Origin: Saprospiraceae bacterium
Lineage (GTDB): Bacteria > Bacteroidota > Bacteroidia > Chitinophagales > Saprospiraceae
Assembly: GCA_022844565.1 (NCBI GenBank)
Contig: JALHLK010000032.1
Coordinates: 1 to 57,714 of the forward strand
DNA: 57,714 nucleotides
Reading direction: 5' to 3'
Under the pieces are notes generated by a model that had not been told where the DNA came from, did not search any database, and saw only the letters and a list, made by a program, of their open reading frames with translations. Position numbers and translations under genes: made by a program. Shown here piece after piece: positions 3,389-34,718 of this stretch. The first letter of the stretch is position 1. Each line of letters opens with the position of its first letter.

Positions 3389-3695
3389 TTTAAACCCAGA
3401 TTACGCATTGGACTTTATTCGAAAGGAAATTAGGCAAAATAGTAGTGAAGCACATGAGCAGCGTAAAAAATTGATATCCGAAATATCAATTTAGCTGCGA
3501 ACTAAAACCAACTGGATTTTAGTTTTTACAATAATTTTTGCAGCCTTAGCTGCATAGAGGACATGAAGGACGTTAAAAATTGACCGCAAGTCAATTTAGT
3601 CTTGAACTGTGGCGCTCCGTCACAGCTATTACAACTTTAAGTTAGGTAGTTTATATTTTCTTGCAGTTAATTTCTAATGCGTAATCTGGGTTAAA
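3389..3695 (+). repeat. Mosaic hairpin repeat, copy B
   Basis: Perfect 15-bp terminal inverted repeats CCCAGATTACGCATT lie at 3395-3409 and 3676-3690. Inside are four hairpins: AAATTGATAT/ATATCAATTT at 3468-3492, GCAGC/GCTGC at 3540-3553, AAATTGAC/GTCAATTT at 3577-3597, and CTGTGGCG/CGTCACAG at 3607-3625. GCAGC (3458-3462) and GCTGC (3494-3498) enclose the first hairpin. The element fills most of the 575-bp gap between the copper monooxygenase-like gene and the VOC gene and has no coding potential. Confidence 0.85.
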
Positions 3696-3707
3696 GGAAT
3701 TTGGACT

Positions 3708-3715
3708 TATCTTTG
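3708..3715 (+). promoter_or_regulatory. Putative -7 element, TATCTTTG
   Basis: Exact TAnnTTTG match 13 nt outside repeat copy B and about 84 nt upstream of the VOC gene. Confidence 0.4.
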
Positions 3716-3798
3716 GTCGCTAATCGTGGGAGATAACAAAGATTTTTTTTGAAATAGGAAAATAGGAATTTGAGAATTTGAAAACTAAATTAATATAA

Positions 3799-4221
3799 AT
3801 GATACAATCTATTGTTCACATCGCTTTAGTCGTAAAGGATTATGATGAAGCCATAGAATTTTATACTAAAAAATTGAATTTTGAATTATTAGAAGACATT
3901 TATCAAGAACAACAAAATAAGAGATGGGTTGTAGTATCGCCAATTGGATCAAAAGGTACAACCATTTTACTTGCTAGAGCTTCAAACCCAGAGCAAGAAA
4001 AGTACGTAGGAAATCAAACTGGAGGAAGGGTTTTTCTTTTTTTGAATACGGATGATTTTTGGAGAGACTATAATGATATGGTGTCTAAAGGGATTGTATT
4101 TGTAAGGGAACCTAAAAAAGAAGATTATGGGCTTGTTGCTGTGTTTGAAGATTTATATGGAAACTTATGGGATCTTTTGGAATTGAACCCTTCCCACCCC
4201 ATCGCAAAAAGGTTGAAATAA
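3799..4221 (+). CDS. VOC (glyoxalase/bleomycin resistance) family protein
   Basis: This 140-residue protein has the single-module length of the vicinal oxygen chelate superfamily. It opens with the typical first strand and helix (IVHIALVVKDYDEAIEFYTK) and ends with the usual FEDLYGNLWDLLEL strand, whose Glu is a common metal ligand; His7 is the likely first ligand. Family members are metal-dependent lyases, dioxygenases or drug-binding proteins and the substrate cannot be read here. It is likely cytoplasmic and active as a dimer. It is monocistronic, convergent with the penicillin acylase gene, and separated from it by only 38 bp. Confidence 0.85.
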   Translation: MIQSIVHIALVVKDYDEAIEFYTKKLNFELLEDIYQEQQNKRWVVVSPIGSKGTTILLARASNPEQEKYVGNQTGGRVFLFLNTDDFWRDYNDMVSKGIVFVREPKKEDYGLVAVFEDLYGNLWDLLELNPSHPIAKRLK

Positions 4222-4259
4222 AATGGATGTTAAGAGCTGCTATAGTTTATCTTCACCCA

Positions 4260-6632
4260 CTATTTTGGCTTAAACATCACTAAAGTCGAAGTCTTGACTA
4301 TCTCTTCTTGATTCATCAACATTTTTCTGAACGCTCCCTTAGCGTAAAGCAATGCCTGATCCTTGTAATGTTTGCTCATGACATTGCCTGACTGGCCTCC
4401 AGGGAGAATACTCATAGAGTTTTCTATATCTGAAAAATCAATAATTCTACGAGTGGAAGGCCCAGCTGTAACATCAAGCTTTTCGGTACCACCATATGAA
4501 AAGGCAAGATTATTGATAACTTCCGATGATCCCTGAGCTGGGTGAGGGCCAACGTTGAAATATTTTCTAAATAAAGCAACTTGACCAAGTGGATGATTTA
4601 ATTCCAAAGTATGAAGATTTTTCCATGCCCAATTAGTAGTCTTATCACTGTATTTAGATTTTAAGTCTTTGATGGTTTGTTTAAAAGATGAAATAATGAT
4701 GTCAGATCTGGATTCCTTATTCGTTGTTGCTATATTATCGCTCCAAGGTGAACTTTCATTTTTTAACTGAAATTCTATAGCTTGTTTTATATGATGAGTC
4801 GTAATTAAAACGCCATAGGCTTCTTTACCAATTTCATCTTCATAAGTATTCCTCAGATAGTTGCGCAGAAACATATAAAAAATACTCGGTGCTGGATCTT
4901 CAGCTTTGTGATCTCCTTTCCATGTAGAGATGACCTTAAGTGATTCTTTTTCGATGGGATCTAGAAGACTTGCATTTTCTAAAGTTTTTACAATAGTTGG
5001 TAAGACCTCTGTAGCCATAATTGAAATATCATCATTGATCATGGTTTTATAATCTTCTATTGTCCATTCATTTTTCTGTGTCAACAATTCATTGATGCGT
5101 CTAGCTCTGTCTTTTGGCAGATAGTAACCTGGTAGTTTAATCTCTTGGTCCGTTGCTGGTTGATTATTGGCTGAATAAACATAGCTGCTTGGTGGATTGA
5201 TGGATTTGGGGTTTTGACTAAAGGGTATAAATGTTCTTTTATCATCTTTTCCGTTTGAACCATTCATGATCATGGTTGTATTAAGGCTATCAGCATAATT
5301 ATATAGTTTTGCAGACGCAATCCAACCAATGTTCCCATCATCATCACCATACATAATATTTAATCCGGGTGATTTGATTTTTTCGCAAGCCGAAAGATAA
5401 TCTTTTAGTGATTTCATATGGGAGATACCATGTACCGCATGCAGTAATTGGTTAGTTTCCTGCGTATGAATCCAATACATTGCAATAGGAGATAAATCTT
5501 TAGTACTTGTCAAAACTTCATTTACAAGTGGTCCCATATGCGTGTTCTCAATATTTAGGTTGATGTTTTCTGCATCTTTTACTTTGATAACTTTTTGAGT
5601 CTTTATAATAGGTAATACCGTATCACCATACATATATGCATTTTCATTTTCTTTTTTTATGGTAAAGAAGTCGACATCATCATTCTCGAGCATGGTCATA
5701 CCATAGGCATATTTTCGGTTATGGCCTAAGGTGGGAAATGGCGTACCAGGGATGTAGTACCCATATATTTCATAATCTTTTACCTTTATATGAGCTTCAT
5801 ACCAAGTACCAGGTTGGCTGTAGCCTATATGTGGATCATTTGCAAAAAGCACCTTCTTATTCTTAGTTTTTTCTGGCCCAACCACCCAACTGTTACTACC
5901 TATAAAAGCTGGGATATTTGATGATTGGAGTATTTTATTAACTTTTACCGACAAGTCACCAATATTTTCTGGAAGATGGGAAGGTATTTTTTCAGTATTG
6001 AAATCATTATATATTCCGAGGTCCTTCAAATATTCAGTGCCATACTTATTGTAAATCTGCGTCATCAACGGGTCTGTTTTATGTGCCATGGCAAAACTAA
6101 AAGCCATATACCCATAAATATTAAAGATATCTTTTATGGTAAATTGAGTTTTTTCTATGCCAAGAATGGTAAATTCTATAGGGGTTTTACCATTTGCTAT
6201 GTATTCATTTATGCCGTCGACATAGGCTTGTGTTAGGATTACCACAGGATCATTTTTGTCTAAAGATTCCACGGTTTTTTGAGAATGATCGTCAATACCC
6301 AAGGTTGCAAAAAGTTTGTCATTGTCTATCATGACATCTCCAAATATTTCTGATAACCTTCCCGGTGCGATACGTCTTACCAGTTCTATCTGCCATAGGC
6401 GCTCTTGAGCATGTACATATCCCAATGCCATCATCGCATCCTTTTCATTTTCGGCTTCGATGTGGGGAATGCCAAAATTGTCAAAATAGGTCTTCGTTTC
6501 CGAGCTTAGACCTTTTATCGTTTTCTCCCCTTCATAAACAGGTTTTAGACTATTTAGGAAAAAATATAATGAAATGCCCAGTAAGGCAAGAATAGTAAAC
6601 AAGCTAATGAGTATTCTTTTCATCCAAATCAT
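4260..6632 (-). CDS. Penicillin acylase family Ntn hydrolase
   Basis: The 790-residue product matches the full length of the penicillin acylase/acyl-homoserine-lactone acylase family. Residues 1-27 form a signal anchor. The A-chain shows the conserved FGIPHIEAENEKDAMMALGY stretch (53-72) and ERLWQIELVRR. The autoproteolysis site is G245-S246-N-S-W, with Ser246 as predicted N-terminal nucleophile of the B-chain, followed by NDPHIGY. The family cleaves amide bonds of beta-lactams, N-acyl amino acids or acyl-homoserine lactones in the periplasm; specificity cannot be told. A second Met at residue 4 could be the start. The gene is monocistronic with its own -7 element. Confidence 0.9.
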   Translation of the reverse strand: MIWMKRILISLFTILALLGISLYFFLNSLKPVYEGEKTIKGLSSETKTYFDNFGIPHIEAENEKDAMMALGYVHAQERLWQIELVRRIAPGRLSEIFGDVMIDNDKLFATLGIDDHSQKTVESLDKNDPVVILTQAYVDGINEYIANGKTPIEFTILGIEKTQFTIKDIFNIYGYMAFSFAMAHKTDPLMTQIYNKYGTEYLKDLGIYNDFNTEKIPSHLPENIGDLSVKVNKILQSSNIPAFIGSNSWVVGPEKTKNKKVLFANDPHIGYSQPGTWYEAHIKVKDYEIYGYYIPGTPFPTLGHNRKYAYGMTMLENDDVDFFTIKKENENAYMYGDTVLPIIKTQKVIKVKDAENINLNIENTHMGPLVNEVLTSTKDLSPIAMYWIHTQETNQLLHAVHGISHMKSLKDYLSACEKIKSPGLNIMYGDDDGNIGWIASAKLYNYADSLNTTMIMNGSNGKDDKRTFIPFSQNPKSINPPSSYVYSANNQPATDQEIKLPGYYLPKDRARRINELLTQKNEWTIEDYKTMINDDISIMATEVLPTIVKTLENASLLDPIEKESLKVISTWKGDHKAEDPAPSIFYMFLRNYLRNTYEDEIGKEAYGVLITTHHIKQAIEFQLKNESSPWSDNIATTNKESRSDIIISSFKQTIKDLKSKYSDKTTNWAWKNLHTLELNHPLGQVALFRKYFNVGPHPAQGSSEVINNLAFSYGGTEKLDVTAGPSTRRIIDFSDIENSMSILPGGQSGNVMSKHYKDQALLYAKGAFRKMLMNQEEIVKTSTLVMFKPK

Positions 6633-6668
6633 AATATAGAAAGTAAAGTGTGTGCTTTAATTAATTTT

Positions 6669-6676
6669 CAAAGGTA
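6669..6676 (-). promoter_or_regulatory. Putative -7 element (TACCTTTG on the minus strand)
   Basis: Exact TAnnTTTG match on the minus strand about 37 nt before the penicillin acylase start. Confidence 0.5.
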
Positions 6677-6753
6677 AATGATAGTTAACTTAATATTTAA
6701 TGAAAAAGGGAATAAATAATTTTATTTTTGAAAGATTTTTGAAATAGAATAGC

Positions 6754-7164
6754 ATGGTAACAAAAAGGAGCATTACACATTTGTCGTATGAAATTATAGG
6801 GTTTGCGATCAAGGTCCATAAAGAGCTTGGTCCAGGACTTTTAGAAAGTGTGTATGAAAAGTGTTTAAAATATGAATTAGAGAAAAATGGCTTTAAAGTA
6901 GAACAACAAGTCTCAGTGCCAATTGTGTAAGATAATATAGATTTTCAAACTGATTTGAGGTTGGACTTATTAGTTGAAAATTTAGTTATTGTGGAACTAA
7001 AAGCAATTGAAGTGATCCATCCTGTTCATGAGGCTGTATTATTATCTTATATGAAAATGCTAAAAAAGCCTCAAGGACTTCTTATCAATTTCCATACGGA
7101 TAAAATTACTAAATCTATGAAGCCTTTTGTAAATGAGTTTTATTCAATTTTGCCTGATGAATAG
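6754..7164 (+). pseudogene. GxxExxY family gene interrupted by a nonsense codon
   Basis: From the ATG the frame encodes MVTKRSITHLSYEIIGFAIK, then the signature GLLESVY, the mark of the GxxExxY (TIGR04256) family. A TAA at 6928-6930 (codon 59) interrupts it, and the same frame then continues with DNIDFQTDLRLDLLVEN and a normal C-terminus to 7164. Family members often have a Tyr where the stop sits, so a single-base change (TAT or TAC to TAA) explains it. Intact members are about 125-135 residues and have a PD-(D/E)xK-like core of unknown role. The second part has no convincing start of its own, so the gene is probably dead unless the stop is suppressed. Confidence 0.8.
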
Positions 7165-7172
7165 GGGTGTTT

Positions 7173-7403
7173 TAAACCATTAAGAAATTAAGGGACATTA
7201 AGGAAGTCAGGTCTTAATGCAATTGAATAACTTAATGGTTTAATAAAAATGAACTATGAACCATTAAGAAATCAAGGGACAATAAGAAATTCAGGTCTTA
7301 ATAAACTTAATACCTTAATGGTTTAATAAAAATGAACCATTAAGAAATTAAAGGCATTAAGGAAGTTAAGTCTTAATGCAGCTTAATACCTTAATGGTTT
7401 AAT
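7173..7403. repeat. Three tandem nested palindromes (CCATTAAG units)
   Basis: Three units of about 70 bp (about 7173-7243, 7259-7325 and 7335-7403) each start with AACCATTAAG and end with its complement CTTAATGGTT. Units 1 and 3 contain an inner pair CATTAAG / CTTAATG, giving a cruciform or long hairpin with two stacked stems. They fill the gap between the convergent GxxExxY pseudogene and the M1/permease gene and could act as a bidirectional terminator. Confidence 0.8.
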
Positions 7404-7413
7404 TAAAAAAACA

Positions 7414-10400
7414 CTATTGCATAAACAACTTCCTGATTTTATGATGGTCTGATGGATCAACTACACCAAGTATCTCATTTACCAAATCAGTTGAAATAGG
7501 TTTTGGATTGGGATATTTGTGTTTGATTAGGAAGTTTTTAAGTGCTTCATTTACCTTATCTTCACCAATCATCTCACTTAAATGGTACATAGCCACGGCA
7601 CCTTTGGAGTAAGAGATATGTGTATCTTCTGATGTGGCTTTGATAAGAGGTTTATCTCCGTTAAATCCTTTTACATTCTCAAATATTCCTTTATGGATTG
7701 CGAGGTGTTTTTCTGCAATTTGCTTTCCGTACATTTTTTTCAAAAGCATGACTTCGGTGTACATAGCAAGTGTTTCGGTGAGCATGACATCACCTTCTCT
7801 ATAATCTGGATCTATTTGACTATTGCCCCACCATATATGAGCAAGCTCGTGACCAGCTAGTTCGTTGATGACGTCTTGTTGTTGATCGGCCTCGATATTG
7901 GAGTGGAAAATCATATTTTCTATCATGTATATCGAGGTGGGATAGGCAGTAGCAGCAAACCCGCTGGTAAAACTAGAAATTTCTGCAAAGCGGATGGTCT
8001 TAAATGGATAAGGACCAAAATTGTTTTGACAATAATCCATTGTGATTTTTGCATTTTTAAGTAAATGATCTACATTTTGAGGATGATCAGGATGGTAGTA
8101 AATTTCATATTTTATGCCATGATAAGTTTCTCTTTTTACAGCATATTTAGCCGAGGATACACCAAATCGGAAGGGAATTGCCGCTACCTGAAATTGATAA
8201 TAATTTCTATTTTTTGCTTTCCATTCTTTGGTGAGTTCACCAATACCAACAACAGTTTGGTCAAGCTCAGTAGAAACCGTCATGTCAAGAGTAATAAAAT
8301 CATCTAACGAGTCTTTTGGTGCTTCTAATGTTTTTAATTTCGTTTTCTCTCTTAATTTATATTGATTTCTCAGTTCGATATCTTCTAATTCTTTGGATGC
8401 GATATAGCCTATGGCAGGATAAAACCGACTTATTCTCATAAAACTCCCATTATCTACAATAGCGTTAAATGACTGGTGGCCATTTACTGGTATCCAATGA
8501 TAAAACATTTCAAATTCGAAATTCATTTTTTCGCCTGGCAACAAGGACTCTTGGAGGTAAATGGTTTTAAATTGCTCATTTATTTCAATTTTTTCATTTT
8601 TATAAAGTAGAAACGCTTTTTTAATTTCAAAACCATCAGCAAAATTAAATAGCAATGAGTCTATTTCAAACTTGGTTTTATTTTCAAGAATATAACTTCC
8701 TTCGATGCGGTATGAATGATTAGAAGGAAATAAATCTATTGTGGTTTTCAAGTCCGTAATCGTAGGTTCGGCTATATTTTGATAACTTCGGAATCTTTTT
8801 TCATAATCAACAGCTTGCTCTATTTCTAAATTTTCATCTGTTGGTAAATAGCCTTCAAGAATCTTATTTGCAGTCCATGCCGTACCAATGACGAAAGCTG
8901 CTGCAGGTACCCAAAAAACTAATCTTTTTAAACTGGATTTGTCTTGAAGAGTCAAAAACCACGCAAAAGCTACCACAAGAAATCCAAAAAAGAGGCGAAT
9001 TAAAAAAGCTTGTTCATAAATGCCAAAACCATTCATGTCACTATAATCAAAACTAATATTATATAAAAATCTTGTCAAGGGATAAGTGTTGATTACCCTG
9101 CTAAGAGAAGTGGTAAATAGTATCAAAGTTAAGATCGATATGCCTAAAGCTATGTATCGATGGTTAACAATTTTATTGATTAACAGACAAATACTACTCA
9201 CTAATATGAGGGGTAGGGTAGTTAATAAAACAATCCTACTGTAGACATTCCACTCTATGTTGTAATTCTTGTACATCAATTGGAAGGTAAGTCCTTCTAA
9301 GAGCATGATAAATGAAAAGAAAATAGAAATAATGATCAAAGTTATAAATACTCCACCAGTTTTTAGTTTGTATTTGGGTGTACTTTTTTCGATAAGATGG
9401 AAATTTGAATTTTCGCTTTTCCAATACAAATCATTAGCATAAAATGCCATGATAAGCGCTGCTAAAAAGTAAAAATTTTGAATTATGGTCGATGTCATTA
9501 AACCAGAGCTTGCAAATTTTTGGGGAAGCCGTACTCCTTTTTCGATCTCGGCATATATTTCCATTCCAACAGCAAATAATAAACTTAGGACAATGATTAT
9601 AAATGGGATGCTTTTTACGATGTATTTACTATAAATTTTTAAATAAGAAGAAAGTACCTCTGTATAATTTTTTTCATTCGTAAAGGTTTCTGCAAAAAAA
9701 AGTGCCTCTTTTTTTGGTTTTAGGACATCTGGGTCTACAACCTTCGATTTTTTTTGTTTTTTAGATATGCTATACCAATTAATAGCAAGTAAAATCATCA
9801 TAATAGAAATGATAACTATTCCCAGACGGTTTATAAGTAGATAACCAGAAAGACTTAGTAATTCAGTATTTTTTTGGTCTACAGTAAGTGTGGAATTGGT
9901 GTAAAAAAAAGCGGAAATCCCAAAAGGATCAACGATGGATGATATAATCTGTGCATTTTTTGATTGGGGTAAGTTATTGGCCATAAATGGAGAATTTGAA
10001 AACAACAAAGCTGCCATATAGATGATATAGAGCACTAATCCCGATACATAAACCATCATTTTACTTTTGGAAGCCCAAGCCACCAATATTGTTACACTTA
10101 AAACAAAGAGTGTATTAATCACAGTAAATGTTATAAAAGGCAAGACGTAATTAAAAATATTAAATCCTACTTTATTGAGATCACTTGTTTCCATCTCTCT
10201 CCCTACGAAAAAACCTATACTTAGCAAAAATATAAACACACTACTCAGTATAAAAATGGAAATAATCCTGCTCCAAAGAAATGATTTAGTGGTAATCGGC
10301 AATGAAAAAAATATTAAATTGAAATTACTATCCATTTCTCTCAAAGCCATTTTTCCTGTGAAAAGCGTGCTGAAAAAGATGGATGCTAAACTCAGAAATG

Positions 10401-10569: not shown

Positions 10570-10573
10570 ATTT

Positions 10574-11449: not shown

Positions 11450-11529
11450 TATTTTTAATTTTTTGACATGAAAATGACAGGCCCAAGTATTTGAGCAAAT
11501 GATTTATTGGGGAAAATTATTACTACATA

Positions 11530-11742: not shown

Positions 11743-11743
11743 A

Positions 11744-12262: not shown

Positions 12263-12286
12263 CCTTCTAAATTTGATTTATTACTG

Positions 12287-12294
12287 CAAATGTA
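12287..12294 (-). promoter_or_regulatory. Putative -7 element (TACATTTG on the minus strand)
   Basis: Exact TAnnTTTG match on the minus strand, about 25 nt before the DUF2975 start; it would drive the DUF2975/HTH pair. Confidence 0.5.
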
Positions 12295-12471
12295 TAATTA
12301 ATTATCGTAAAACAATAATTAGTTATAAAAAATTAACAAAATATTTAACTTTTTAGTTGATATGGACAGAAAAGTAAATGATTGATAAGTTACCCTGCTA
12401 TTTATCATTAAATAACAAATCAGAATATCTTAGCGTTTTTTGTAAAACCAAAAAAGCTAATAGAGCTGTTT

Positions 12472-13347: not shown

Positions 13348-13377
13348 TTTGGTAGGTATCGGAATTTCAAGAAAAGA

Positions 13378-13385: not shown

Positions 13386-13417
13386 CATTTTAAATTGTCT
13401 AATTTCTGAATACAAAT

Positions 13418-27318: not shown

Positions 27319-27624
27319 AAGATATATTTTCTTATGAATACCTACGATAATTTAGAAACGAAACGTAGTAAACTTTTATTAAAGTGAGGGTAAAAAGGAC
27401 TGAAATATGGTACATCGATTATGAAATAGTTGGATTTTGATAAATTAAATCTTACAGCAGGAATTGTTTTTTAAGCTTCCTTTTGAAATAAATGATGTTT
27501 AAAAAATTGAATTCAAAAATATTTCTATTAAAAAGTTTTCTTCTTGTTGGTTTATTATATTTTGTAATGTGTTAAAATTAAAATAAGCTAAATACTGATT
27601 GAATTCTTTAATAAACACATAAAG
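27319..27624. other. Intergenic stretch, no gene recognised
   Basis: About 306 very AT-rich bases sit between the divergent kinase and the small plus-strand genes. No open frame with coding character, hairpin or exact -7 element was recognised on either strand. Confidence 0.4.
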
Positions 27625-27735
27625 ATGTCTTTTTGGGCATGGATGGGAGATTACGCCATTTATGTTTTATACAATTTATATTCTTATTATGATGGTTTGA
27701 AATATGTCGTCAATAAAGAGTTTTATGATAATTAG
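27625..27735 (+). CDS. Short hypothetical ORF (36 residues)
   Basis: ATG start and TAG stop enclose a 36-residue peptide rich in Tyr and Trp (MSFWAWMGDYAIYVLYNLYS and onward). It lies 12 bp upstream of a second small ORF in the same direction and belongs to the same run of genes. It may be a real micro-protein or the 5' remnant of a larger gene. No family was recognised. Confidence 0.35.
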   Translation: MSFWAWMGDYAIYVLYNLYSYYDGLKYVVNKEFYDN

Positions 27736-27747
27736 TTTTTAGAAAAA

Positions 27748-27921
27748 ATGATTTATGTAGTTGTAATGGTAGCTGCAGGGGCTGTTTTTAAAATTTGGGG
27801 AAAAACGCGAATAGCTAATCTAATATTGGGTGTACCAGCTTTAATTATTATTTTTGAATTTTTACTAATGATGGGTGTTTGGCTTTTTTTAGCATTGGCT
27901 TTTATTATATTTGTAAAATAA
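27748..27921 (+). CDS. Small hydrophobic membrane protein (57 residues)
   Basis: The peptide starts MIYVVVMVAAGAVFKIWG and has two membrane segments (about 2-16 and 25-55) split by the basic KIWGKTR. It lies 7 bp upstream of the DUF3592-like gene, indicating an operon. Tiny two-segment proteins of this kind are often overlooked by annotation. Function unknown. Confidence 0.5.
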   Translation: MIYVVVMVAAGAVFKIWGKTRIANLILGVPALIIIFEFLLMMGVWLFLALAFIIFVK

Positions 27922-27928
27922 AATTAAA

Positions 27929-28375
27929 ATGAACATAATTTTAAACATTATTAATACAATAGGACCTTTATTATCACTAATTGGAACTTATTGCTTGATA
28001 CTTTCATACTCCAAAAGCAATGAAATTGAGCATGCAATTACTAAAGGAAAAATCGCCGATGGAGTGGTGATAAAAATGCGTGAAGACCCAGACCATTCTC
28101 CAGCGGATTTGGCCTATAGAGGTGTGGCACCCGTGGTGGAGTTTAGAACTGTAAATGGTTTCTTCCAGCACTTTTCTTTGACCTACAAGAAAAACAGCCC
28201 TTTTGAAGTAGGGAAAGCTGTAAAAATTTATTATTATCATTATAAATCCAGAATGGAAATGGCACTTGAAGATGACGAAACAGGCACGCTTCCAAAAACC
28301 TTATTAAAATGGGGCATAATTTTTTGTGCTATTGGATATCCGATCGTCTTGTATAAAATGAGAGGATTATTTTAA
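27929..28375 (+). CDS. DUF3592-like membrane protein
   Basis: The 148-residue protein has a membrane segment at about 7-28, a soluble beta-rich part (about 40-110, with ITKGKIADGVVIKMRED, VVEFRTVNG and FEVGKAVKIYYY), and a second membrane segment at about 125-142. This is the DUF3592 arrangement. Members are frequently found among polymorphic-toxin immunity genes, though their role is unproven. It is in line with the following accessory genes. Confidence 0.7.
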   Translation: MNIILNIINTIGPLLSLIGTYCLILSYSKSNEIEHAITKGKIADGVVIKMREDPDHSPADLAYRGVAPVVEFRTVNGFFQHFSLTYKKNSPFEVGKAVKIYYYHYKSRMEMALEDDETGTLPKTLLKWGIIFCAIGYPIVLYKMRGLF

Positions 28376-28468
28376 GGGGTAGATTGTTTCTTTATTTGTA
28401 AAATTTGCTTTCAAATGAGACAAATAATAGACTTTACATACCTTGCATTGAAATAATAAAAAAGATAG

Positions 28469-29254
28469 ATGGATCAGTTTTTTGGAGTTATTGAGATTTT
28501 AACGGTAGAAAATATTTTTCCAACCGATGTACACGATCAGGGTACTGAAAAAGTGATGTTGATGGATGATGTCAGGTTTGTACATTATCCTGATTGCCAG
28601 CAGATGAGCTTGTGGTTACCAGAATATTTTATGGAATATCATAATGTAATTATACAAAATATAGTGGACAATGTGGTGATTTTTGATCAGAAGGTAGAGC
28701 ACATCATCAATGGTAGTATAAAGATATTGTTAGATACCTTATTTATTTGCCCAGGAACTTACGAGTTGATAATCAACAAAAAGAGTGGGGTGGTCCATAT
28801 TGTTCGATTTAAAAAGTACCCAGAAGGCCAGTTAATTTCAATACCAGAAATCACTCCGTCAATACCTTTTGATTTAGACAGTGAACCGATTGTATATAGA
28901 GATGGATTTGGCAATGTATTACCTAATGAAGATCTGTTGTTAAGGCAAGCTATTATTGACAAAACTATAAATAAAATTACGCGTAGATTGGAGTATATCA
29001 GTCAAGGAAGAGGCGGTGAAGTCATCTATCTCGAAGGTAACAAAAGCATCAAGTTCTACATGGAAATGGGTGGTGGCAATTGTGTGTTTTACCTAGATAT
29101 TCCATCGATATCAGCATGGGAAAAAACTACCAATTTTCCGCTGTCAGAGAGAGAAGATATCATCAATTATGTCGCCGAACAAACGCGGCGAGATCAAGCA
29201 TCATCATGTACTTATAAGATTTCGGATACGGAGATTACGTACTTTAGAAAGTAA
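28469..29254 (+). CDS. Hypothetical protein with GGG(N/D)C C-terminal domain
   Basis: No family is recognised for this 261-residue protein. The N-terminal part (1-160) is beta-rich and lacks a signal peptide. The C-terminal about 90 residues (about 172-261) contain KFYMEMGGGNCVFYLDIP, then SEREDIINYVAEQTRRD and a final YKISDTEITYF. The same domain makes up most of the 119-residue protein encoded at 32086, sharing FYME-GGG-C-F-IPS. The two are paralogues within 3 kb. The protein is probably cytoplasmic. Its place among lipoproteins and DKNYY-like genes suggests an immunity-type accessory role, which is inference. Confidence 0.7.
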   Translation: MDQFFGVIEILTVENIFPTDVHDQGTEKVMLMDDVRFVHYPDCQQMSLWLPEYFMEYHNVIIQNIVDNVVIFDQKVEHIINGSIKILLDTLFICPGTYELIINKKSGVVHIVRFKKYPEGQLISIPEITPSIPFDLDSEPIVYRDGFGNVLPNEDLLLRQAIIDKTINKITRRLEYISQGRGGEVIYLEGNKSIKFYMEMGGGNCVFYLDIPSISAWEKTTNFPLSEREDIINYVAEQTRRDQASSCTYKISDTEITYFRK

Positions 29255-29447
29255 AAGTACTTAGAAATTATTATCCGACTTTTCATAAATGGCATGTCGC
29301 TCGCATGAAATCGTCTTTTGATCAAAACGACTCATACTTTATTTCCTACGCTTCATTTTATCAATTGTTTGGCTAATGTAAAAGTATTTTATAAGTATCT
29401 AGATAGTAGTCACCTTTGTGTTATTAATTTATAAAAACTTTAAAATC

Positions 29448-30200
29448 ATGAATAAATTATTTATCATTTTTATTTCATTTATTGCTTTATTCAGTTGTCA
29501 AAAAGATGCTAATTTAAACCCAGCTGCTATCAAAAGTCTGGCGAAAGTCACTTATGTATGGGATAATGGTACACCAGACATTCAAGAATTTACCTATGAT
29601 CCACAAGGAAGGTTAGCAGTAGTTAAAGACAATGATCAAACTGCCACTTTTAATTACGTTTCACCATTATCATTAGTCGTAACAGCAAAGAAAAATATAT
29701 CCAACACTCCGTATCGAACCTTTAACTGTACTTTAAATAGTAAAGGATATATAACAAAAATAAGCATGATAAACCCTGACGGTACACTTCACTACACGTA
29801 CAATTATACATATAATACAGAGGATTATATTATTAAAACGGAAGGTATACCACCAACAGGTATTGGGTTTGCTACGGAATATGTCATTCAAAACGGTAAC
29901 GTCATTTCTTCAAAGAACTTTAATGGAAACGTGTTGGGTTATTCAGGACAATACACCTTTGACAACCGTTTAGAGAATAAGACTGGGTTTGGTCACACTG
30001 GATATTGGTATTCTAACAGACTCTTTGGGAAAGGGCTTAAAAATATGTTAGTGGATTACAAATCAGTTTCACCTACTAACACGATCACTTGGCATACTCA
30101 ATATAAATATGAGTTAGATAAAGACGGATATCCCTTGACTTCAACTACGGTAAACGTTTTGGATAAAAAACAAGGAATAGAAACATATATTTATAAGTAA
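29448..30200 (+). CDS. Hypothetical lipoprotein with YD-like repeats
   Basis: The ATG at 29448 gives a lipoprotein signal with lipobox LFSC (Cys near residue 17); an upstream GTG in frame would bury it. The 250-residue product contains beta-strand repeats of the form EFTYDPQGRLAVVKD, YNYTYNTEDYIIKTEG and YKYELDKDGYPLTSTT, similar to the YD/RHS-type repeats of Bacteroidota DUF4595-like lipoproteins. It is likely surface- or periplasm-facing, with no enzymatic motif. Confidence 0.75.
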   Translation: MNKLFIIFISFIALFSCQKDANLNPAAIKSLAKVTYVWDNGTPDIQEFTYDPQGRLAVVKDNDQTATFNYVSPLSLVVTAKKNISNTPYRTFNCTLNSKGYITKISMINPDGTLHYTYNYTYNTEDYIIKTEGIPPTGIGFATEYVIQNGNVISSKNFNGNVLGYSGQYTFDNRLENKTGFGHTGYWYSNRLFGKGLKNMLVDYKSVSPTNTITWHTQYKYELDKDGYPLTSTTVNVLDKKQGIETYIYK

Positions 30201-30270
30201 GTTTTAGAATGTATTACGACCTATTCTTATGTATAAATATTAGCAGAGTTTAATTTCATTACAGCAATAA

Positions 30271-30549
30271 CATTTATCCAATTCCACGTTTATCGAGATT
30301 CCTGATTTGATATCCAAGTTCGAACATCTAGAAGAAATTTCCATCATCGATTGTCCGGATTTTTCGGTCATGCATAGTGACTTCAGCAAACTCAAATCAC
30401 TTAGGAAGATATACTTTGACAATGTTCCGTCGCATCGGTCTTTGCCTGTAAAACTTCATAAACTTTCGGATATAAATGAAATATATCTTTCTGAATATGA
30501 AAAAATCGATCAAGTGCCCGATCTTTGGATTAGAATAATGAATAACTGA
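30271..30549 (+). pseudogene. Leucine-rich-repeat protein fragment lacking a 5' end
   Basis: An open frame after the stop at 30268 encodes leucine-rich-like repeats (FEHLEEISIIDCPDFSVM, then FSKLKSLRKIYFDN, LHKLSDINEIYLSEYEKIDQ) with about 23-residue periodicity. It has no signal peptide and no good start codon, and looks like the 3' remnant of a larger LRR gene. The frame ends 7 bp before the next lipoprotein gene. An internal TTG or ATG could still make a short product. Confidence 0.5.
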
Positions 30550-30556
30550 TATAACC

Positions 30557-30988
30557 ATGCAAGGAAGATTTATAGGCACATTATTTGGATTTTTTATTAT
30601 GATCTTGCTTTTTTTGTCATGCGGAACATCCAAGAATACGTCAAATAATGAGCAAAAAATGAAGGAACTAAAATTGAATAATGCAGAAATTCAAGGGATC
30701 GTTTCTACTGATGTTATGGGTGAAACCTATTACCAATTGAATTTCACTCATAAAGGTAAATTGCGTCATGCTGTATTTTATTACCAACAACATTCAGGTG
30801 TAATTGAAGAAAATATGATGAATCAGAAGCGTAAGGTAATATTGACTGCAAAACGTCATGAACTCCCAAGGTCTGTATATCCTTTACTGACTCAAGGATA
30901 TATCGTAGTCCAGTTTACTTGGTTGGGGTTGGAGACTTACCAAATAGTTAAGGATTTTACAATATTGGAGTCTGTAGTTCAGAAATGA
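30557..30988 (+). CDS. Small hypothetical lipoprotein
   Basis: The 143-residue protein has a lipoprotein signal (MILLFLSC, Cys near residue 22), a Ser/Asn/Lys-rich linker and a compact beta-rich domain (about 45-135; ETYYQLNFTHKGKLRHAVFY, then YIVVQFTWLGLETYQIVKDF). No family was recognised. It forms part of a same-strand run with short gaps, together with the membrane protein and DKNYY-like lipoproteins that follow. Confidence 0.7.
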   Translation: MQGRFIGTLFGFFIMILLFLSCGTSKNTSNNEQKMKELKLNNAEIQGIVSTDVMGETYYQLNFTHKGKLRHAVFYYQQHSGVIEENMMNQKRKVILTAKRHELPRSVYPLLTQGYIVVQFTWLGLETYQIVKDFTILESVVQK

Positions 30989-31014
30989 AATTTTAAAATA
31001 AAAATGCTCTGTCA

Positions 31015-31386
31015 ATGAAAATTATAAAAATACTAATAGGTCCTGAGCTTTATTGGTTAGTACTGTATATTTTATCTATTATATTGGCTTGGGCAAACAA
31101 AAAATATAGCTATGTCTATGATGGCATCATCGAAAATGTGTGGTTTTATGTTCCACTATTATCAACGATGATATTTGTTTTGTATTGGATACCTTTTGTG
31201 GGGAAAAACTGGCTCTTGGCCCGCATATGGATATCTGGTATCATTATGGGCCATTTGGTATTCGAGACCACTATGAAAGCTTATAGCAGTCAAGGACCTG
31301 GTATCGGTATGGGTTACCTGGCAGGCATGCTTTTTCTTTTTTTCATATTGGTTGTTGGCAGTGTTGTAGTAAAAATTGTTTTTTAA
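31015..31386 (+). CDS. Small integral membrane protein
   Basis: The 123-residue protein has four membrane segments (about 9-25, 42-61, 70-85 and 97-120). No conserved motif was recognised. It is 26 bp after the lipoprotein gene and 18 bp before the next lipoprotein gene, so it is likely co-transcribed with them. Confidence 0.7.
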   Translation: MKIIKILIGPELYWLVLYILSIILAWANKKYSYVYDGIIENVWFYVPLLSTMIFVLYWIPFVGKNWLLARIWISGIIMGHLVFETTMKAYSSQGPGIGMGYLAGMLFLFFILVVGSVVVKIVF

Positions 31387-31404
31387 TCATTTAAATAAAA
31401 TACA

Positions 31405-32043
31405 ATGAAAATATTCATCATTATCATATTGTCATTTCTACTCATTTTTTTTATTTCCTCATGCGAAACAGGTTATGTCAAAAAAGGATACAACTGGGTT
31501 TGGGTGACCAATGACGAAAATTTTGGTAGTAGAGACCATTGGATAGAAGGGATAGACAGCGAGAGTTTTATGGTGTCAAAACAGAATGAAAATTTCGGAA
31601 CAGATCGATACTCAGCCTACTTCCAAGGAAGAAAAGTAAACCATGCCATATCTGATGGTTTTATCCCTTTGACAAACGATGCTTATGGATACGCTAAAGA
31701 TAAATTTCATGCTTTTCTGGATACCGAAGTCATTTTAAAAGCAGATCCCAATACTTTTGAAGTACTTGGTTTTCCGTACTCCAAAGATAAAAATGATGTG
31801 TATAATGGCACCATACCGATGAACCTAAGCAAAAGTGAAGTCGCTGCATTCAGGGTGACCAATGAAGACAAAGTAATGGGAGGTATGAAGACTACGACAC
31901 TATTATCAGAGTTTTTAAGATTTAGTCCGGAATATGGATGGATAGATAGTTTATATCCGGATGTAAAATGGGTCATTACGGATAGGTGGGGTACAGGTGA
32001 AGCTTTGGGTAAAAAATTTAAAGGACTAGAAGAAATCAAATGA
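31405..32043 (+). CDS. DKNYY-like lipoprotein
   Basis: The 212-residue protein has a lipobox ISSC (Cys about residue 22). Its body shows short repeats of the DKNYY type: YAKDKFHAFLDTEVILKADP followed by FEVLGFPYSKDKNDVYNGT, in which an aromatic-Ala/Ser-Lys-Asp-Lys core precedes an aromatic strand and a buried Asp-Pro turn. DKNYY repeats are frequent in immunity proteins of polymorphic toxin loci. The C-terminus is distinct (WITDRWGTGEALGKKFKGLE). It is envelope-anchored and has no catalytic motif. Confidence 0.75.
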   Translation: MKIFIIIILSFLLIFFISSCETGYVKKGYNWVWVTNDENFGSRDHWIEGIDSESFMVSKQNENFGTDRYSAYFQGRKVNHAISDGFIPLTNDAYGYAKDKFHAFLDTEVILKADPNTFEVLGFPYSKDKNDVYNGTIPMNLSKSEVAAFRVTNEDKVMGGMKTTTLLSEFLRFSPEYGWIDSLYPDVKWVITDRWGTGEALGKKFKGLEEIK

Positions 32044-32085
32044 AAAATAAACCATGATAGTTAGTAAATATTTAAAGTAATTAAA

Positions 32086-32445
32086 ATGGGAAATACTTAT
32101 ATATTCTGGTCAGTACTCCAGCGTTTTTTTGTTCAAAAACCAGAAAAAGAGGAGTCAAAAAACCCTAAGAGAATGACCTTCGAAAACAATGGTCGGTCGG
32201 GTTATGCCATATTTTGGGATGGAGATAAAGCTACCAAGTTTTATATGGAATTAGGGGGAGGTGACTGTATGTTTTTTGTGAATATCCCTTCACAAAATGA
32301 TTGGTCATCACATACAAGGTATTCATTAAATCAAAGAGATGAAATTCTTAAGTTTATTGCTGAAGAATCACTCCGTCTTCAATCCAATAGTCCAGAATCT
32401 TATTACAAAATAGAAGAAGAATGGATCAGTTTTTTTCAAAAATAA
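32086..32445 (+). CDS. Small protein consisting of the GGG(N/D)C domain
   Basis: This 119-residue protein carries the domain found at the C-terminus of the 261-residue protein encoded at 28469: KFYMELGGGDCMFFVNIPSQ, then LNQRDEILKFIAEES and YYKIEEEWISFF. The first about 30 residues are unrelated. No signal peptide is evident. It sits between the two DKNYY-like lipoprotein genes with gaps of 42 and 12 bp. A free-standing and a fused version in one cluster suggests a modular function, perhaps immunity. Confidence 0.7.
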   Translation: MGNTYIFWSVLQRFFVQKPEKEESKNPKRMTFENNGRSGYAIFWDGDKATKFYMELGGGDCMFFVNIPSQNDWSSHTRYSLNQRDEILKFIAEESLRLQSNSPESYYKIEEEWISFFQK

Positions 32446-32457
32446 GAATAATACTAT

Positions 32458-33522
32458 ATGAATATTATTAAATTTATTTTTTACTTTATTGGGTTACTTA
32501 CAGTTTGGTTTTTTGCCTCCTGCAAAAGCAGTAATGACAAAGATAAAACTGTTACAAAAACTTCTGATAAAATGGATAATGGTTTTGTTCGAAAAAATGA
32601 TACGATATGGTTTTATGATATAGTGCTTAATAATGTAGACCCTAATACTTTTAAAATAGTAGATGACTACTTTTTTAAAGATAAAAACCATGTCTATTTT
32701 TATGAAACTTACAGGTTAGGTAAAGATTTTTTTACTAGCAAAAGAAAAAGATTTCTTCTATTAGAAAAAGCAGATCCAGCCAGTTTTATAAGTTTGGATT
32801 ATGGATATGCCAAGGACAAATCTACAGCATGGTACAACAATAGCGCTTTTGAGGTTGATGATTTAGAAAGTCTAGTGGTGATTAATCAACATTTTTTAAG
32901 GGACAACAAAACAGCCTATTTAGATAGGAAACGGATTAAAGAAAGCGATGGAATAAGCTTTGAACTGATCTCTGAACATTATGCCCAAGACTTAAAAAGG
33001 TATTATTATTACCTGCCTTTTGACGATACGTATGTTATCAATCCTATCCTTTGTCATTACGAGTCCTTCGAGGTGATAGATTACCAATATGCTAAAGATA
33101 ATACAAATGTATTTTTTGAAGGTGATAAATTGCAAGAAGCTGAAAGCAAAACTTTTATGATGATTTCTCATGGATATGCCAAGGATACTTTTCATGTCTT
33201 TTTTAGAGACAAGATCTTAGAAAATGCAGATCCCTTTTCATTTACACCTTTCAAAGAAAATGAAAATTCCCTAGGAGAAACTGTGTACGCAAAAGATAAA
33301 AACGGTATTTATGTCAATGACAAACTTTTTATTGAAACCGATGTAGTTTCCTTCAAAATCCTGAATGAAAAATACACTTTGGATAAAAATGGGGTATATT
33401 ACCATATGAAAAAGGTTAAAAATGCAGACCCTTTATCTTTCAAAGTTTTTCCTCATTTTATGGGGGATGCAGATGCCGAGGATAAAAACCACCGATTTGG
33501 CGAAGGAAAGGTGGTAGAATAA
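32458..33522 (+). CDS. DKNYY domain lipoprotein
   Basis: The 354-residue protein has a lipobox FASC (Cys near residue 22) and about seven or eight tandem DKNYY units, seen as DDYFFKDKNHVYFYET, YGYAKDKSTAWYNN, HFLRDNKTAYLDRK, YQYAKDNTNVFFEGD, HGYAKDTFHVFFRDK, VYAKDKNGIYVND and EKYTLDKNGVYYHMKK. These form a repeat-rich beta structure outside the membrane. The family is common among immunity genes. The frame continues after the stop codon (see 33523). Confidence 0.85.
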   Translation: MNIIKFIFYFIGLLTVWFFASCKSSNDKDKTVTKTSDKMDNGFVRKNDTIWFYDIVLNNVDPNTFKIVDDYFFKDKNHVYFYETYRLGKDFFTSKRKRFLLLEKADPASFISLDYGYAKDKSTAWYNNSAFEVDDLESLVVINQHFLRDNKTAYLDRKRIKESDGISFELISEHYAQDLKRYYYYLPFDDTYVINPILCHYESFEVIDYQYAKDNTNVFFEGDKLQEAESKTFMMISHGYAKDTFHVFFRDKILENADPFSFTPFKENENSLGETVYAKDKNGIYVNDKLFIETDVVSFKILNEKYTLDKNGVYYHMKKVKNADPLSFKVFPHFMGDADAEDKNHRFGEGKVVE

Positions 33523-33651
33523 AAATTTGTTTTCCAAAATCTAAGTGTTTTAGAAGATGCCCTGAAGTACCTAAATAATGAGGATATAGAAGACAAAAAG
33601 CGAGAACTACTTCCAGGGATTGAACAATTTAGACAATGGTTTGATCAGTAA
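33523..33651 (+). pseudogene. In-frame coding remnant directly after the DKNYY stop
   Basis: The frame that ends the DKNYY gene continues with 42 codons of plausible protein (KFVFQNLSVLEDALKYLNNE, then an Asp/Lys-rich helix ending QFRQWFDQ) and a second TAA. It has no start codon. A further short frame at 33653-33715 (MRMQDIYDKLKMSERLLLDI) follows. Both look like helical 3' remnants of deleted genes, not parts of the beta-rich DKNYY protein. Stop readthrough is an alternative. Confidence 0.4.
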
Positions 33652-33711
33652 GATGAGGATGCAGGATATTTATGATAAGTTAAAAATGAGTGAACGGTTG
33701 CTTTTAGATAT

Positions 33712-34368
33712 TTAAGTATGAATGAGCATTCGTTCTATTGCTTTAAGAACTTCCTCTCTGTTTTTAGCAAATTTGATAAAATCCGGAAGTTTCTCTACCA
33801 TAGTCATCTTAAATTTGTCAGTTGTACGTTCACGAAGTGTAGCTTTAACATAGTTTTTAATCTCTGTTAGATGCCTAAGATTATATGCCCAGAGATTATT
33901 GCCTTTAACAGTGTCCTGATACCAAAGAGGTAGGCCGAAAGCTGGGTCTACAATACCTGACTCATGATATTTTTCGACATAGGATTCCCAATTTTGGCTG
34001 ACCATGTTGATCGTTTTACAGTACTTACATGTTAGATTGACATAGGATGGGATGGTTTTATAGCCCTCAATGGTTGATAAATTTAAAAACTCCAAACATT
34101 GGTGACATTTGGCTTTGCCAGCTGGTTTATAGCGTACAAGATCTGTTGCCTTTTCAGAATAATGACAAGAATTACACTTTAGAATAGCATTTTTGTAATC
34201 AAAAGGTAGTGGCACAGAAATTTCAGCACTACCTTCACATTTAGGACAATGTACCAAAAAAGAATTCATAAGATCGTAAAGTCTTACTGGGTCGGCTTGA
34301 TATCTCTCCATATTTATTATATTTTGGATTTGTTTCTGATGTTTATCTTCGAATTTGTATTTCGTCAC
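33712..34368 (-). CDS. Zinc-ribbon hypothetical protein
   Basis: The 218-residue protein has two predicted zinc ribbons: Cys pairs 41/44 with 65/68 (CPKC, CNSC) and 88/91 with 114/117 (CHQC, CKYC). The C-terminal about 80 residues are helical and basic. There is no signal peptide, so it is cytoplasmic. A nucleic-acid or protein-binding role is likely from the fold, but no family was recognised. The 3' end overlaps the last bases of the plus-strand remnant, and its 5' side faces repeat copy C. Confidence 0.75.
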   Translation of the reverse strand: MTKYKFEDKHQKQIQNIINMERYQADPVRLYDLMNSFLVHCPKCEGSAEISVPLPFDYKNAILKCNSCHYSEKATDLVRYKPAGKAKCHQCLEFLNLSTIEGYKTIPSYVNLTCKYCKTINMVSQNWESYVEKYHESGIVDPAFGLPLWYQDTVKGNNLWAYNLRHLTEIKNYVKATLRERTTDKFKMTMVEKLPDFIKFAKNREEVLKAIERMLIHT

Positions 34369-34394
34369 TTTGCCATTGATTCACTGATTTAGTT

Positions 34395-34514
34395 ATGGTA
34401 AACTGGATTACCCAAATCTCAATGGTTTTAATAACTATTATTTATATTCCTATTTTTGTCTATTTGATTATTAAACCCATATTACGCATTGGACTTTATT
34501 CGAAAGGAAATTAG
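34395..34514 (+). pseudogene. Membrane ORF running into repeat copy C
   Basis: An ATG-initiated frame encodes MVNWITQISMVLITIIYIPI plus a hydrophobic continuation, then reads into the repeat (KPILRIGLYSKGN) and stops at 34512-34514. The membrane segment ends where the repeat begins, so the repeat may have truncated a membrane protein gene. A chance open frame is possible. Confidence 0.3.
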
Positions 34515-34718
34515 GCAAAATAGTAGTGAAGCACATGAGCTGCGTAAAAAATTGATATCCGAAATATCAATTTAGCAGCGAACTAAAACCAACTGGATTT
34601 TAGCTTCTCCAATAATTTTTGCAGCCTTAGCTGCATAGAGGACGGAAAATTGAGTACTGAAACTAATATGAAGCATAATTTTCTTGAAGTTAATTTCCAA
34701 TGCGTAATATGGGTTAAA
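34471..34718 (+). repeat. Mosaic hairpin repeat, copy C
   Basis: Perfect 18-bp terminal inverted repeats CCCATATTACGCATTGGA lie at 34476-34493 and 34696-34713. Internal hairpins are AAATTGATAT/ATATCAATTT at 34549-34573, enclosed by GCTGC (34539-34543) and GCAGC (34575-34579), and GCAGC/GCTGC at 34621-34634. The central part matches copy B, while the right part (about 34640-34690) matches copy A and not B. The right end overlaps the stop codon of the next minus-strand gene. Confidence 0.85.

What the first reader, a model, noticed from the sequence alone, without database searches (positions are those of the whole stretch)
3389..34718. Mosaic hairpin repeat family with terminal inverted repeats (copies A, B, C)
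Three non-coding elements (151-494 inverted, 3389-3695, 34471-34718) share ends of the form TTAAACCCAkATTACGCATT and a central hairpin block. B and C share the centre. A and C share the right part, which B replaces by two extra hairpins. Such modular exchange with no coding content does not fit a simple insertion-sequence relic. It could be a non-autonomous palindromic element (MITE or REP-like) or a mobile structured RNA.
Basis: partly seen in the sequence, partly recalled or inferred. Interest (0 to 1): 0.72.

Follow-up and report, generated by a model that had tools for sequence, protein, structure and literature searches.

The report
Jumping hairpin DNA with swapped structured cassettes
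The three repeats are copies of a short gene-less jumping DNA whose ends match a known family of jumping enzymes in other bacteria, whose hairpin shape is kept across many species, and which shares a small swappable folded cassette with other jumping DNAs of the same genus.

Summary
A, B and C belong to a high-copy family of non-autonomous elements with inverted ends (CCCRNATTNNKCATTRGA) and a 5-bp, mostly TTWAA, target duplication. Of 79 elements collected from the own genome, 57 have identical duplications (23 expected on re-pairing flanks). The same ends occur in many Bacteroidota and some Campylobacterota, up to 306 ends in one genome, most often 160-179 bp apart. In Fulvivirga an uninterrupted IS1380-family (PF13701) transposase lies between such ends with a perfect duplication, so these are IS1380-type MITEs; no IS1380 transposase was found in the own genome.

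Two further layers explain the mosaic. (1) The interior keeps one long hairpin across Bacteroidota with strong covariation and, mostly, strand-specific G:T wobbles, so a single strand (RNA or ssDNA) is probably selected. (2) The central block of B and C, and B's "extra hairpins", are copies of one unclassified two-hairpin motif (AUGA-P1-GUUAA-P2-A-P1'-GAA-P3-CUA). It also lies in elements with unrelated ends in this genus, and once more in the window (44729-44795). Copy A also carries an IS110-derived insert in one end, where an IS110 element sits here and in Flavobacterium davisii. Mobilisation, transcription and motif function are untested.

The parts
34471..34718 (+). Copy C: 238-bp MITE (34476-34713) with TTAAA duplication 34471-34475 / 34714-34718; one motif copy
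3390..3695 (+). Copy B: 296-bp MITE (3395-3690) with TTAAA on both sides; two motif copies
151..494 (-). Copy A: 334-bp MITE (156-489) with TTAAA on both sides; one motif copy; IS110-derived insert in one end
164..258 (+). IS110-derived insert (no long ORF) inside the terminal repeat of A, after CCCAGATT; 12 strong matches to this stretch in the own genome, 11 beginning TTWAACCC and one ATTAACCC
34535..34606 (+). Two-hairpin motif in C (75.3 bits)
3454..3525 (+). Two-hairpin motif, first copy in B (73 bits)
3563..3628 (+).
359..430 (-). Two-hairpin motif in A (74.8 bits)
44729..44795 (+). Two-hairpin motif with no recognised element ends around it (70 bits, E 5.5e-15); not used to build the model

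Best explanation
A, B and C are MITEs: short DNA elements without genes that are cut and pasted in trans by an IS1380-family DDE transposase, which recognises the CCCRNATTNNKCATTRGA ends and inserts at TTWAA with a 5-bp duplication (ends and duplications shown; enzyme inferred from shared ends, never tested). The interior is not filler: it forms one long imperfect hairpin whose helices are kept by compensatory changes across Bacteroidota, mainly on one strand, so a single-stranded form (transcript or ssDNA) is probably selected (covariation shown, role inferred). In this genus the middle of the hairpin has been replaced, once or twice, by a 66-72-nt two-hairpin cassette that also sits in elements with unrelated ends; this exchange makes the mosaic (shown by comparison; how the cassette moves is not known). 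IS110-type elements use the ends of these MITEs as a landing site (same place in two genera shown; bridge-RNA guidance inferred from the IS110 family).
For: Copies and ends. Duplications, not required for collection: 57 of 79 own elements 5/5 and 17 of 79 4/5, shuffled 5/5 mean 23.0; of 22 sites that are not TTWAA, 9 are still identical on both sides, such as ATTAT, TTTAC, ATAAA. In 16 genomes chosen because they carry the pattern, ends with up to 2 mismatches number e.g. 306 in Labilibacter sediminis (control 0), 249 in F. davisii (3), 146 in a Nitratifractor MAG (0). Partner: L314 (Fulvivirga sp. M361), PF13701 ORF without stop in a 1402-bp element, TTAAA on both sides; L329 (one TAG in frame) TTTAA on both sides; L309 (Algoriphagus MSM8, frame interrupted; 322-aa piece PF13701 E 1.2e-29) duplication 4/5; Aquimarina transposase C-terminus next to a TTTAA-CCCGAATTATGCATTAGA end. 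Internal fold: 20 non-terminal pairs, 91.3% of cells paired (shuffled 68.4), covariation 0.667 (shuffled 0.236, slid at most 0.142). Strand: with pairs chosen by Watson-Crick pairing alone, G:T 71 against A:C 22, in favour in 20 of 24 rows, 2 against, 2 ties; Labilibacter copies 33 against 8. Motif: 47 instances, 0 in reversed control; covariation 0.568 (shuffled 0.200) on 22 rows and 0.472 (0.198) on 36 distinct rows from loci found by sequence similarity alone; hits outside the training set at window 44729 and L536. IS110.
Against: No IS1380 transposase in the own genome: 0 PF13701 matches; with profile A3 one match at E 0.039 over 53 residues without tblastn support. Yet own copies are close to each other (mean column identity 96% for the 16 in A2), so the enzyme was lost, lies in an assembly gap, or is another one. 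PF13701 was found in only 9 of 21 genomes, over the cut-off in 5; genomes rich in ends such as Labilibacter and Nitratifractor had none. No empty site was seen: the genes flanking B lie on different contigs in the genus relatives. Strand asymmetry is weak in one count: for the 16 pairs predicted on both strands G:T is 12 against A:C 9, and for the 19 pairs predicted from the other strand 12 against 15. Gene orientation shows no clear preference (upstream neighbour same strand 28 of 44). Palindrome correction during replication could make some compensatory changes without selection.
Confidence: 0.82

Rival explanations
1. The conserved interior is selected as an RNA made from the element (for example a regulatory or stability element), and the MITE is mainly a carrier of that RNA.
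For: Covariation outside the ends; consensus energy on the chosen strand -28.9 against -8.2 on the other, -52.8 against -21.3 in Labilibacter; G:T above A:C in three sets, 71/22, 33/8 and 16/2; motif stems change while unpaired bases stay.
Against: No transcript data; no Rfam match; no clear orientation bias to neighbouring genes; for pairs predicted on both strands the wobble excess is small (12 against 9); ssDNA would give the same asymmetry. I lowered this from 0.4 to 0.38 when adding the 12/9 count.
Confidence: 0.38
2. The inner two-hairpin motif is itself a minimal ssDNA element (a remnant of an IS200/IS605- or REP-like Y1 element: short tag, hairpin with internal loop, second tag, second hairpin, CAA) that inserted into the loops of MITEs.
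For: AUGA and GAA directly before the two hairpins, a CAA often some nt after; present in hosts with unrelated ends; a copy in the window without recognised ends around it.
Against: No Y1-like ORF by a simple pattern in the held DNA of this genus, which is under a tenth of the own genome; with/without comparisons show replacement, not clean insertion. The likeness to IS200/IS605 ends is recalled, not tested.
Confidence: 0.25
3. The compensatory changes are made by quasi-palindrome correction (template switching within the hairpin) and not by selection.
For: Near-identical own copies differ by paired changes in the terminal stem, e.g. CCCATATT/AATATGGG and CCCAAATT/AATTTGGG; the small 12/9 wobble count for pairs predicted on both strands.
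Against: It should be symmetric between strands, but G:T exceeds A:C about 3:1 or more in three sets; it does not explain conserved unpaired bases.
Confidence: 0.2
4. The elements are deletion derivatives of an IS110-type element.
For: A and 11 other places carry IS110-like end sequence; the C53 element has hairpin ends.
Against: The IS110 part interrupts the terminal repeat after CCCAGATT while the TTAAA duplication stays outside (F. davisii L252; own copies); most own copies lack it; 5-bp duplications do not fit IS110, as recalled.
Confidence: 0.04

Closest known systems
IS1380 family (PF13701 transposase; e.g. ISEcp1, IS1247)
   Same: Ends begin CC (recalled for the family, seen here); 5-bp duplications (IS1247, IS1380 family: 5 bp in Table 2 of PMC3281130, passages seen); IS1380-type elements with these very ends and TTWAA duplications in Fulvivirga.
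   Different: No transposase gene; long structured interior; partner not found in the own genome.
Bacterial MITEs (MITEPsy1; IS982-derived MITE of Cardinium; ERIC/RU and Correia elements)
   Same: Short, gene-less, inverted ends, target duplication. Seen: passages of PMC3189936, abstract and section list of PMC9769881, start of the PMC2759123 abstract in a listing (RU-1 127 bp, RU-2 168 bp). ERIC and Correia are recalled.
   Different: MITEPsy1 is described as restricted to the P. syringae complex with more distant homologues; here length and internal fold are shared across Bacteroidota classes, and a cassette is shared between elements with unrelated ends.
REP / REPIN with RAYT
   Same: High-copy intergenic hairpins; 44-53-bp near-perfect palindromes with the same CCCRNATT ends also exist here.
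   Different: These elements have 5-bp duplications and DDE-type ends. REPIN paper PMC3116915 seen in a search listing only.
Mosaic non-autonomous transposons (TIMEs)
   Same: Mosaic elements built on miniature inverted-repeat elements (title and start of abstract of PMC4133298 in a listing).
   Different: TIMEs are Tn3-derived; the module here is a small structured motif.
Retrozymes
   Same: Non-autonomous mobile elements that carry a structured RNA (PMC4918200, title and start of abstract in a listing).
   Different: Plant retroelements with hammerhead ribozymes; our motif lacks the hammerhead CUG and NUH positions (recalled consensus) and has no Rfam match.
IS110 elements that target palindromic repeats
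   Same: REPs as targets of IS elements (PMC1525189) and bridge RNAs of IS110 elements (PMC11208160), both seen as titles and abstract starts in a listing.
   Different: The target here is the end of a MITE, the same place in two bacterial genera.

Membership tests
IS1380-type MITE | Terminal inverted repeats | tested here: met
IS1380-type MITE | Target-site duplication of IS1380 size (5 bp for IS1247) | tested here: met
   57 of 79 own elements 5/5, shuffled mean 23.0
IS1380-type MITE | No transposase gene inside | tested here: met
   No ORF of 80 aa or more lies within A, B or C; own elements paired are at most 395 bp. The one long copy (C24, 1747 bp) carries a 434-aa ORF without Pfam match
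IS1380-type MITE | Same ends on an autonomous element | tested here: met
   Fulvivirga L314 (no stop, duplication 5/5) and L329 (one TAG, 5/5); Algoriphagus MSM8 L309 (interrupted, 4/5)
IS1380-type MITE | Partner transposase in the same genome | tested here: not met
   Own genome: 0 PF13701 matches; one weak profile match, E 0.039, without tblastn support
IS1380-type MITE | Movement in trans | not testable with these tools
   Needs an assay
REP/RAYT system (for the whole element) | Insertion without target duplication | tested here: not met
   5-bp duplications
REP/RAYT system (for the inner motif) | Y1 (HUH) transposase gene nearby | tested here: inconclusive
   Pattern scan of held DNA only, 0 candidates; no whole-genome search was left
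Known RNA family (Rfam 15) | Covariance-model match | tested here: not met
   Whole window at gathering cut-offs: 0; copy C with flanks, E<=1: 0; copy B with flanks, E<=2: 0; L345-L347, L351, L352, E<=2: one match, not at the motif
Structured RNA (unclassified) | Covariation that supports the fold | tested here: met
   the instances were found with a rule that asks for pairing, those come from loci found by similarity but aligned to the model
Structured RNA (unclassified) | Transcription | not testable with these tools
   No expression data
IS110 element (C53) | DEDD transposase (PF01548, PF02371) | tested here: met
   L122 ORF, E 3.8e-25 and 5.2e-10

The most novel reading that the evidence does not exclude
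The two-hairpin motif (AUGA-P1-GUUAA-P2-A-P1'-GAA-P3-CUA) is an undescribed mobile structured nucleic acid, working as RNA or ssDNA on one strand, that rides in and moves between otherwise unrelated MITEs. The MITE's own fold, conserved across the phylum, would be a platform for it. A half-matching copy in a Campylobacteraceae MITE of the same end type (L255, 24.3 bits, E 0.009; first hairpin only) hints that it crosses phyla.
Probability: 0.33. Interest if true: 0.8.

Novelty: new variant of a known kind. Interest (0 to 1): 0.62.

Why it matters
Bacterial MITEs are usually read as internally deleted insertion sequences. Here a MITE type found in many Bacteroidota and some Campylobacterota keeps its length and a largely strand-specific fold through compensatory change, so something inside it seems to be selected, and a folded cassette is shared between elements that different enzymes should move. 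That gives a concrete system for asking whether bacterial MITEs carry functional RNA or ssDNA, how modules pass between unrelated elements, and how IS110 elements come to use a mobile element's end as landing site. The cassette now has a covariance model (R1) and a test set.

Tried and rejected
Rfam identity of element and motif: no match; the sub-threshold AdoCbl-II match in L345 904-981 lies outside the motif. G054 match: lies in an rpsN-like gene by reading (L142), taken as chance. PF13701 in the own genome and the weak C62 match: rejected after tblastn. Hammerhead reading of the motif: AUGA and GAA recall the core, but CUG and the NUH triplet (recalled) are missing and Rfam is silent. Closing helix around the motif: mean duplex energy -3.4 against -2.9 for mismatched partners (sd 2.2), rejected. 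Short-peptide reading (ATG ... in some copies): several copies stop after 6 codons, while the stems covary; rejected by reading. Phages and plasmids: no match to B's second motif, E<=1. First motif scan had an offset error and found 0; corrected. A looser rule gave 46 hits, 40 of them beginning ATGA (37 own, 3 G004), and 2 in the reversed control, none with ATGA; its two hits outside the genus (L244, L318) lack ATGA and were not followed. Empty site of B: no synteny. Paper PMC5395568 on F. columnare: passages seen, nothing on this repeat.

Rows dropped: A1 uses 21 of the 43 elements of 158-200 nt scored, plus two own copies and G003; the rest align poorly or are lineage variants. A4 uses 22 of 38 distinct motif sequences. 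One search kept 44 own and 15 other elements that passed a score and orientation filter. One search covered 100 of the 112 GTDB-contig loci (L198-L296, L309); the other 12 (L297-L308) were. Of 31 regions found only by similarity to B's second motif, 24 fulfil the motif rule; 6 have small changes and 1 is cut by a contig end.

Not in print: nothing found (open-licence PMC only); subscription papers and ISfinder were not searched.
Full report
What is there. The direct TTAAA on both sides of CCCA...TGGG shows that the element proper is 238 bp in C (34476-34713), 296 bp in B (3395-3690) and 334 bp in A (156-489, minus strand). In the own genome (5.59 Mb, 102 contigs) one search lists 40 places with E of 4e-54 or less for copy C (40 of 108 candidates were scored); an end pattern with up to 3 mismatches matches 98 times against 2 for the reversed pattern. 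collected, by ends alone, 79 distinct elements from the held stretches of this genome: 28 of 230-239 bp, 16 of 170-179, 10 of 290-299, 7 of 50-59, the rest spread from 40 to 399; no two share a right end within a locus.

Target duplication. Not requiring it, 57 of the 79 have identical 5-bp flanks and 17 more match in 4 of 5; shuffling the right flanks gives a mean of 23.0 identical and a maximum of 33 in 2000 trials. 57 left flanks are TTAAA or TTTAA (TTWAA); of the 22 others 9 still match exactly (e.g. ATTAT, TTTAC, ATAAA).

Spread. Viral contigs gave 3. Sixteen genomes chosen for carrying it were searched with up to 2 mismatches: Labilibacter sediminis 306 ends (control 0), Flavobacterium davisii 249 (3), a Nitratifractor MAG 146 (0), a Cytophagales MAG 140 (0), down to a Flavivirga with 5 (3). 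Of 55 elements paired in the contig loci, 27 are 160-169 bp and 5 are 170-179 bp long. In the own genus blast with copy C gave a copy in one of five relatives, G003 (172 bp, L141; 7 candidates scored per genome).

Enzyme. In Fulvivirga sp. M361 an IS1380-family ORF without stop (PF13701) lies in a 1402-bp element with ends CCCGCATTATTCAATAGA / CCTTGATTATGCAATAGG and TTAAA on both sides (L314). L329 (one TAG in frame) has TTTAA on both sides; L333/L334 (one place, in pieces) has TTTAT on both sides; L322 (no stop) has matching ends but unlike flanks (ATTAA, TTTAT). Algoriphagus MSM8 L309 (1403 bp, frame interrupted; 322-aa piece PF13701 E 1.2e-29) has a 4/5 duplication. Algoriphagus algorifonticola has four copies without stops, each next to a contig end, so only one such end of each is seen. 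Among the 27 loci many weak PF13701 matches (e.g. L316-L319) show no such ends; L319 reads as another transposase family. In Aquimarina 745 a transposase C-terminus at a contig start is followed by a TTTAA-CCCGAATTATGCATTAGA end. PF13701 was found in 9 of 21 genomes, over the cut-off in 5; Labilibacter and Nitratifractor, rich in ends, had none. The own genome has none either, so for this species the enzyme is inferred.

Conserved interior. Alignment A1 holds 24 elements of 165-174 nt from Flavobacteriia, Cytophagia, Saprospiraceae and Bacteroidales, including two own copies and G003; mean column identity 68%. For 20 pairs outside the terminal repeat 91.3% of cells pair (shuffled 68.4%), 110 cells have changes on both sides (31.8), covariation is 0.667 (0.236); sliding the partners gives at most 0.142. 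Relatedness inflates the shuffle control; the slide control keeps it. The fold leans to one strand: consensus energy -28.9 against -8.2 kcal/mol on the complement; with pairs chosen by Watson-Crick pairing alone, G:T 71, A:C 22, other mismatches 121; G:T exceeds A:C in 20 of 24 rows, 2 against, 2 ties. Against this, the 16 pairs predicted on both strands, mostly terminal, give only 12 against 9, and the 19 pairs predicted from the complement 12 against 15. Twenty further copies from Labilibacter sediminis plus L278 give 33 against 8, and -52.8 against -21.3 kcal/mol. A DDE transposase that reads double-stranded ends does not ask for this. Orientation to neighbouring genes is not clearly biased (own: upstream same strand 28 of 44; downstream same 18, opposite 24); none of 59 elements lies inside a long ORF, and divergent gene pairs are the rarest setting (5 own).

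The cassette. The hairpin block shared by B and C, and B's two extra hairpins, have the same plan: AUGA, a 5-bp helix P1, GUUAA, a helix P2 (loop CGCAA in many), A, P1', GAA, a helix P3 of the form CU...AG, CUA. It was first seen by reading stretches found by blast with B's second motif. A scan by rule over 1.55 Mb of held DNA gave 47 instances and none in the reversed control. On 22 distinct sequences the 19 pairs are 97.1% paired (shuffled 77.9), covariation 0.568 (0.200; slid at most 0.114); G:T 16 against A:C 2. Because the rule asks for pairing and for GTWWA, A and GAACT, part of that is built in. As a check, 31 regions found by similarity alone: 24 fulfil the rule, 6 have small changes, 1 is cut off, and the eight most diverged (L084-L088, L345-L347) all fulfil it with other stem sequences; 36 distinct model-aligned rows from the 28 own loci give 96.8% paired and covariation 0.472 (0.198; slid at most 0.136).

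A covariance model finds the window copies and one not used to build it at 44729-44795 (70 bits), plus another in G004 (L536, 80.5 bits). It finds none in about 117 kb of G003 and 85 kb of G005 (best 17.4 bits, E 0.34), none in 80 viral loci, and one weak match in 100 GTDB-contig loci: L255, a Campylobacteraceae MAG, 24.3 bits, E 0.009, inside a 243-bp MITE of the same end type that is 80 nt longer than L214 and L234; only the first hairpin matches. The other 12 GTDB-contig loci gave none (its one strong hit, L381, is own DNA).

The cassette sits in elements with different ends: the family of B and C; the GGTCATTAG MITEs (L024, L351, L352); elements ending AGTGCTCCGTC (L085, L086, and by similarity L157, L197); an element ending GTAACTATTCAGG with an 8-bp direct repeat AAACTAAT (L087) and its relative L088; G004 elements ending ATACTTATCGGAAA (L345-L347). 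Only L087 has a long direct repeat, so the ends of the others rest on inverted repeats. With/without comparisons (own 172 against 238 and 296 bp; L350 against L352; L214 against L255) show replacement of part of the hairpin middle, not a clean insertion. In B and C and in the GGTCATTAG MITEs the cassette lies on the structured strand of the host MITE (by reading).

IS110. A's odd end is an insert of about 95 nt in the terminal repeat, after CCCAGATT. Twelve places in the own genome match it at E 2.1e-43 or better, 11 beginning TTWAACCC and one ATTAACCC. Its two ends resemble those of an IS110-type element (443-aa ORF; PF01548 3.8e-25, PF02371 5.2e-10) in contig C53, by weak blast matches (E 0.002 and 0.045) and reading. 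In F. davisii an IS110-type element, its frame interrupted, sits at the same place with the TTAAA duplication outside it. That the guide is a bridge RNA is inferred from the family (PMC11208160, listing only).

Verdict. The mosaic is explained by three layers: IS1380-type MITEs, a shared structured cassette, and IS110 landings. The first layer is a new family of a known kind. The conserved, mostly strand-specific fold and the shared cassette go beyond what I know of bacterial MITEs and are why I score it above an ordinary MITE. The function of the fold is not shown.

Noticed in passing
window 13-126: Another repeat: 11 places in the same-genus genome G004, three of them at contig starts; perhaps the end of an insertion sequence that breaks assemblies.
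   Followed up: no
window 7172-7407: Three copies of a 76-nt imperfect palindrome (ATGAACCATTAAGAAAT...) side by side; a different repeat family.
   Followed up: no
window 34714-34718: The right TTAAA duplication of copy C contains the stop codon of the minus-strand ORF 34714-35073: the element abuts the end of an ORF.
   Followed up: no
G000:C24:26874-28620 (L121): A 1747-bp version of the element carries a 434-aa ORF, without Pfam match, inserted in the first motif hairpin: a possible passenger gene.
   Followed up: partly
G000 C11, C13, C22, C26, C34, C51, C58, C62: Near-perfect 44-53-bp palindromes with the same CCCRNATT ends, several with TTWAA duplications; 53-bp candidates also in L217, L246, L251, the last two with weaker end matches.
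   Followed up: partly
L252, L204 (Flavobacterium davisii): IS110-type element (L252) and, by reading, an ORF-less derivative (L204) at the same place in the MITE end as in the own genome.
   Followed up: partly
L255:3427-3669 (Campylobacteraceae MAG): MITE of the same end type with an extra stretch of about 80 nt whose first hairpin fits the motif (GUGA-GACCC-GUUAA...A-GGGUC).
   Followed up: partly
L345 904-981 (G004): Sub-threshold AdoCbl-II riboswitch match (26 bits, cut-off 36.5).
   Followed up: no
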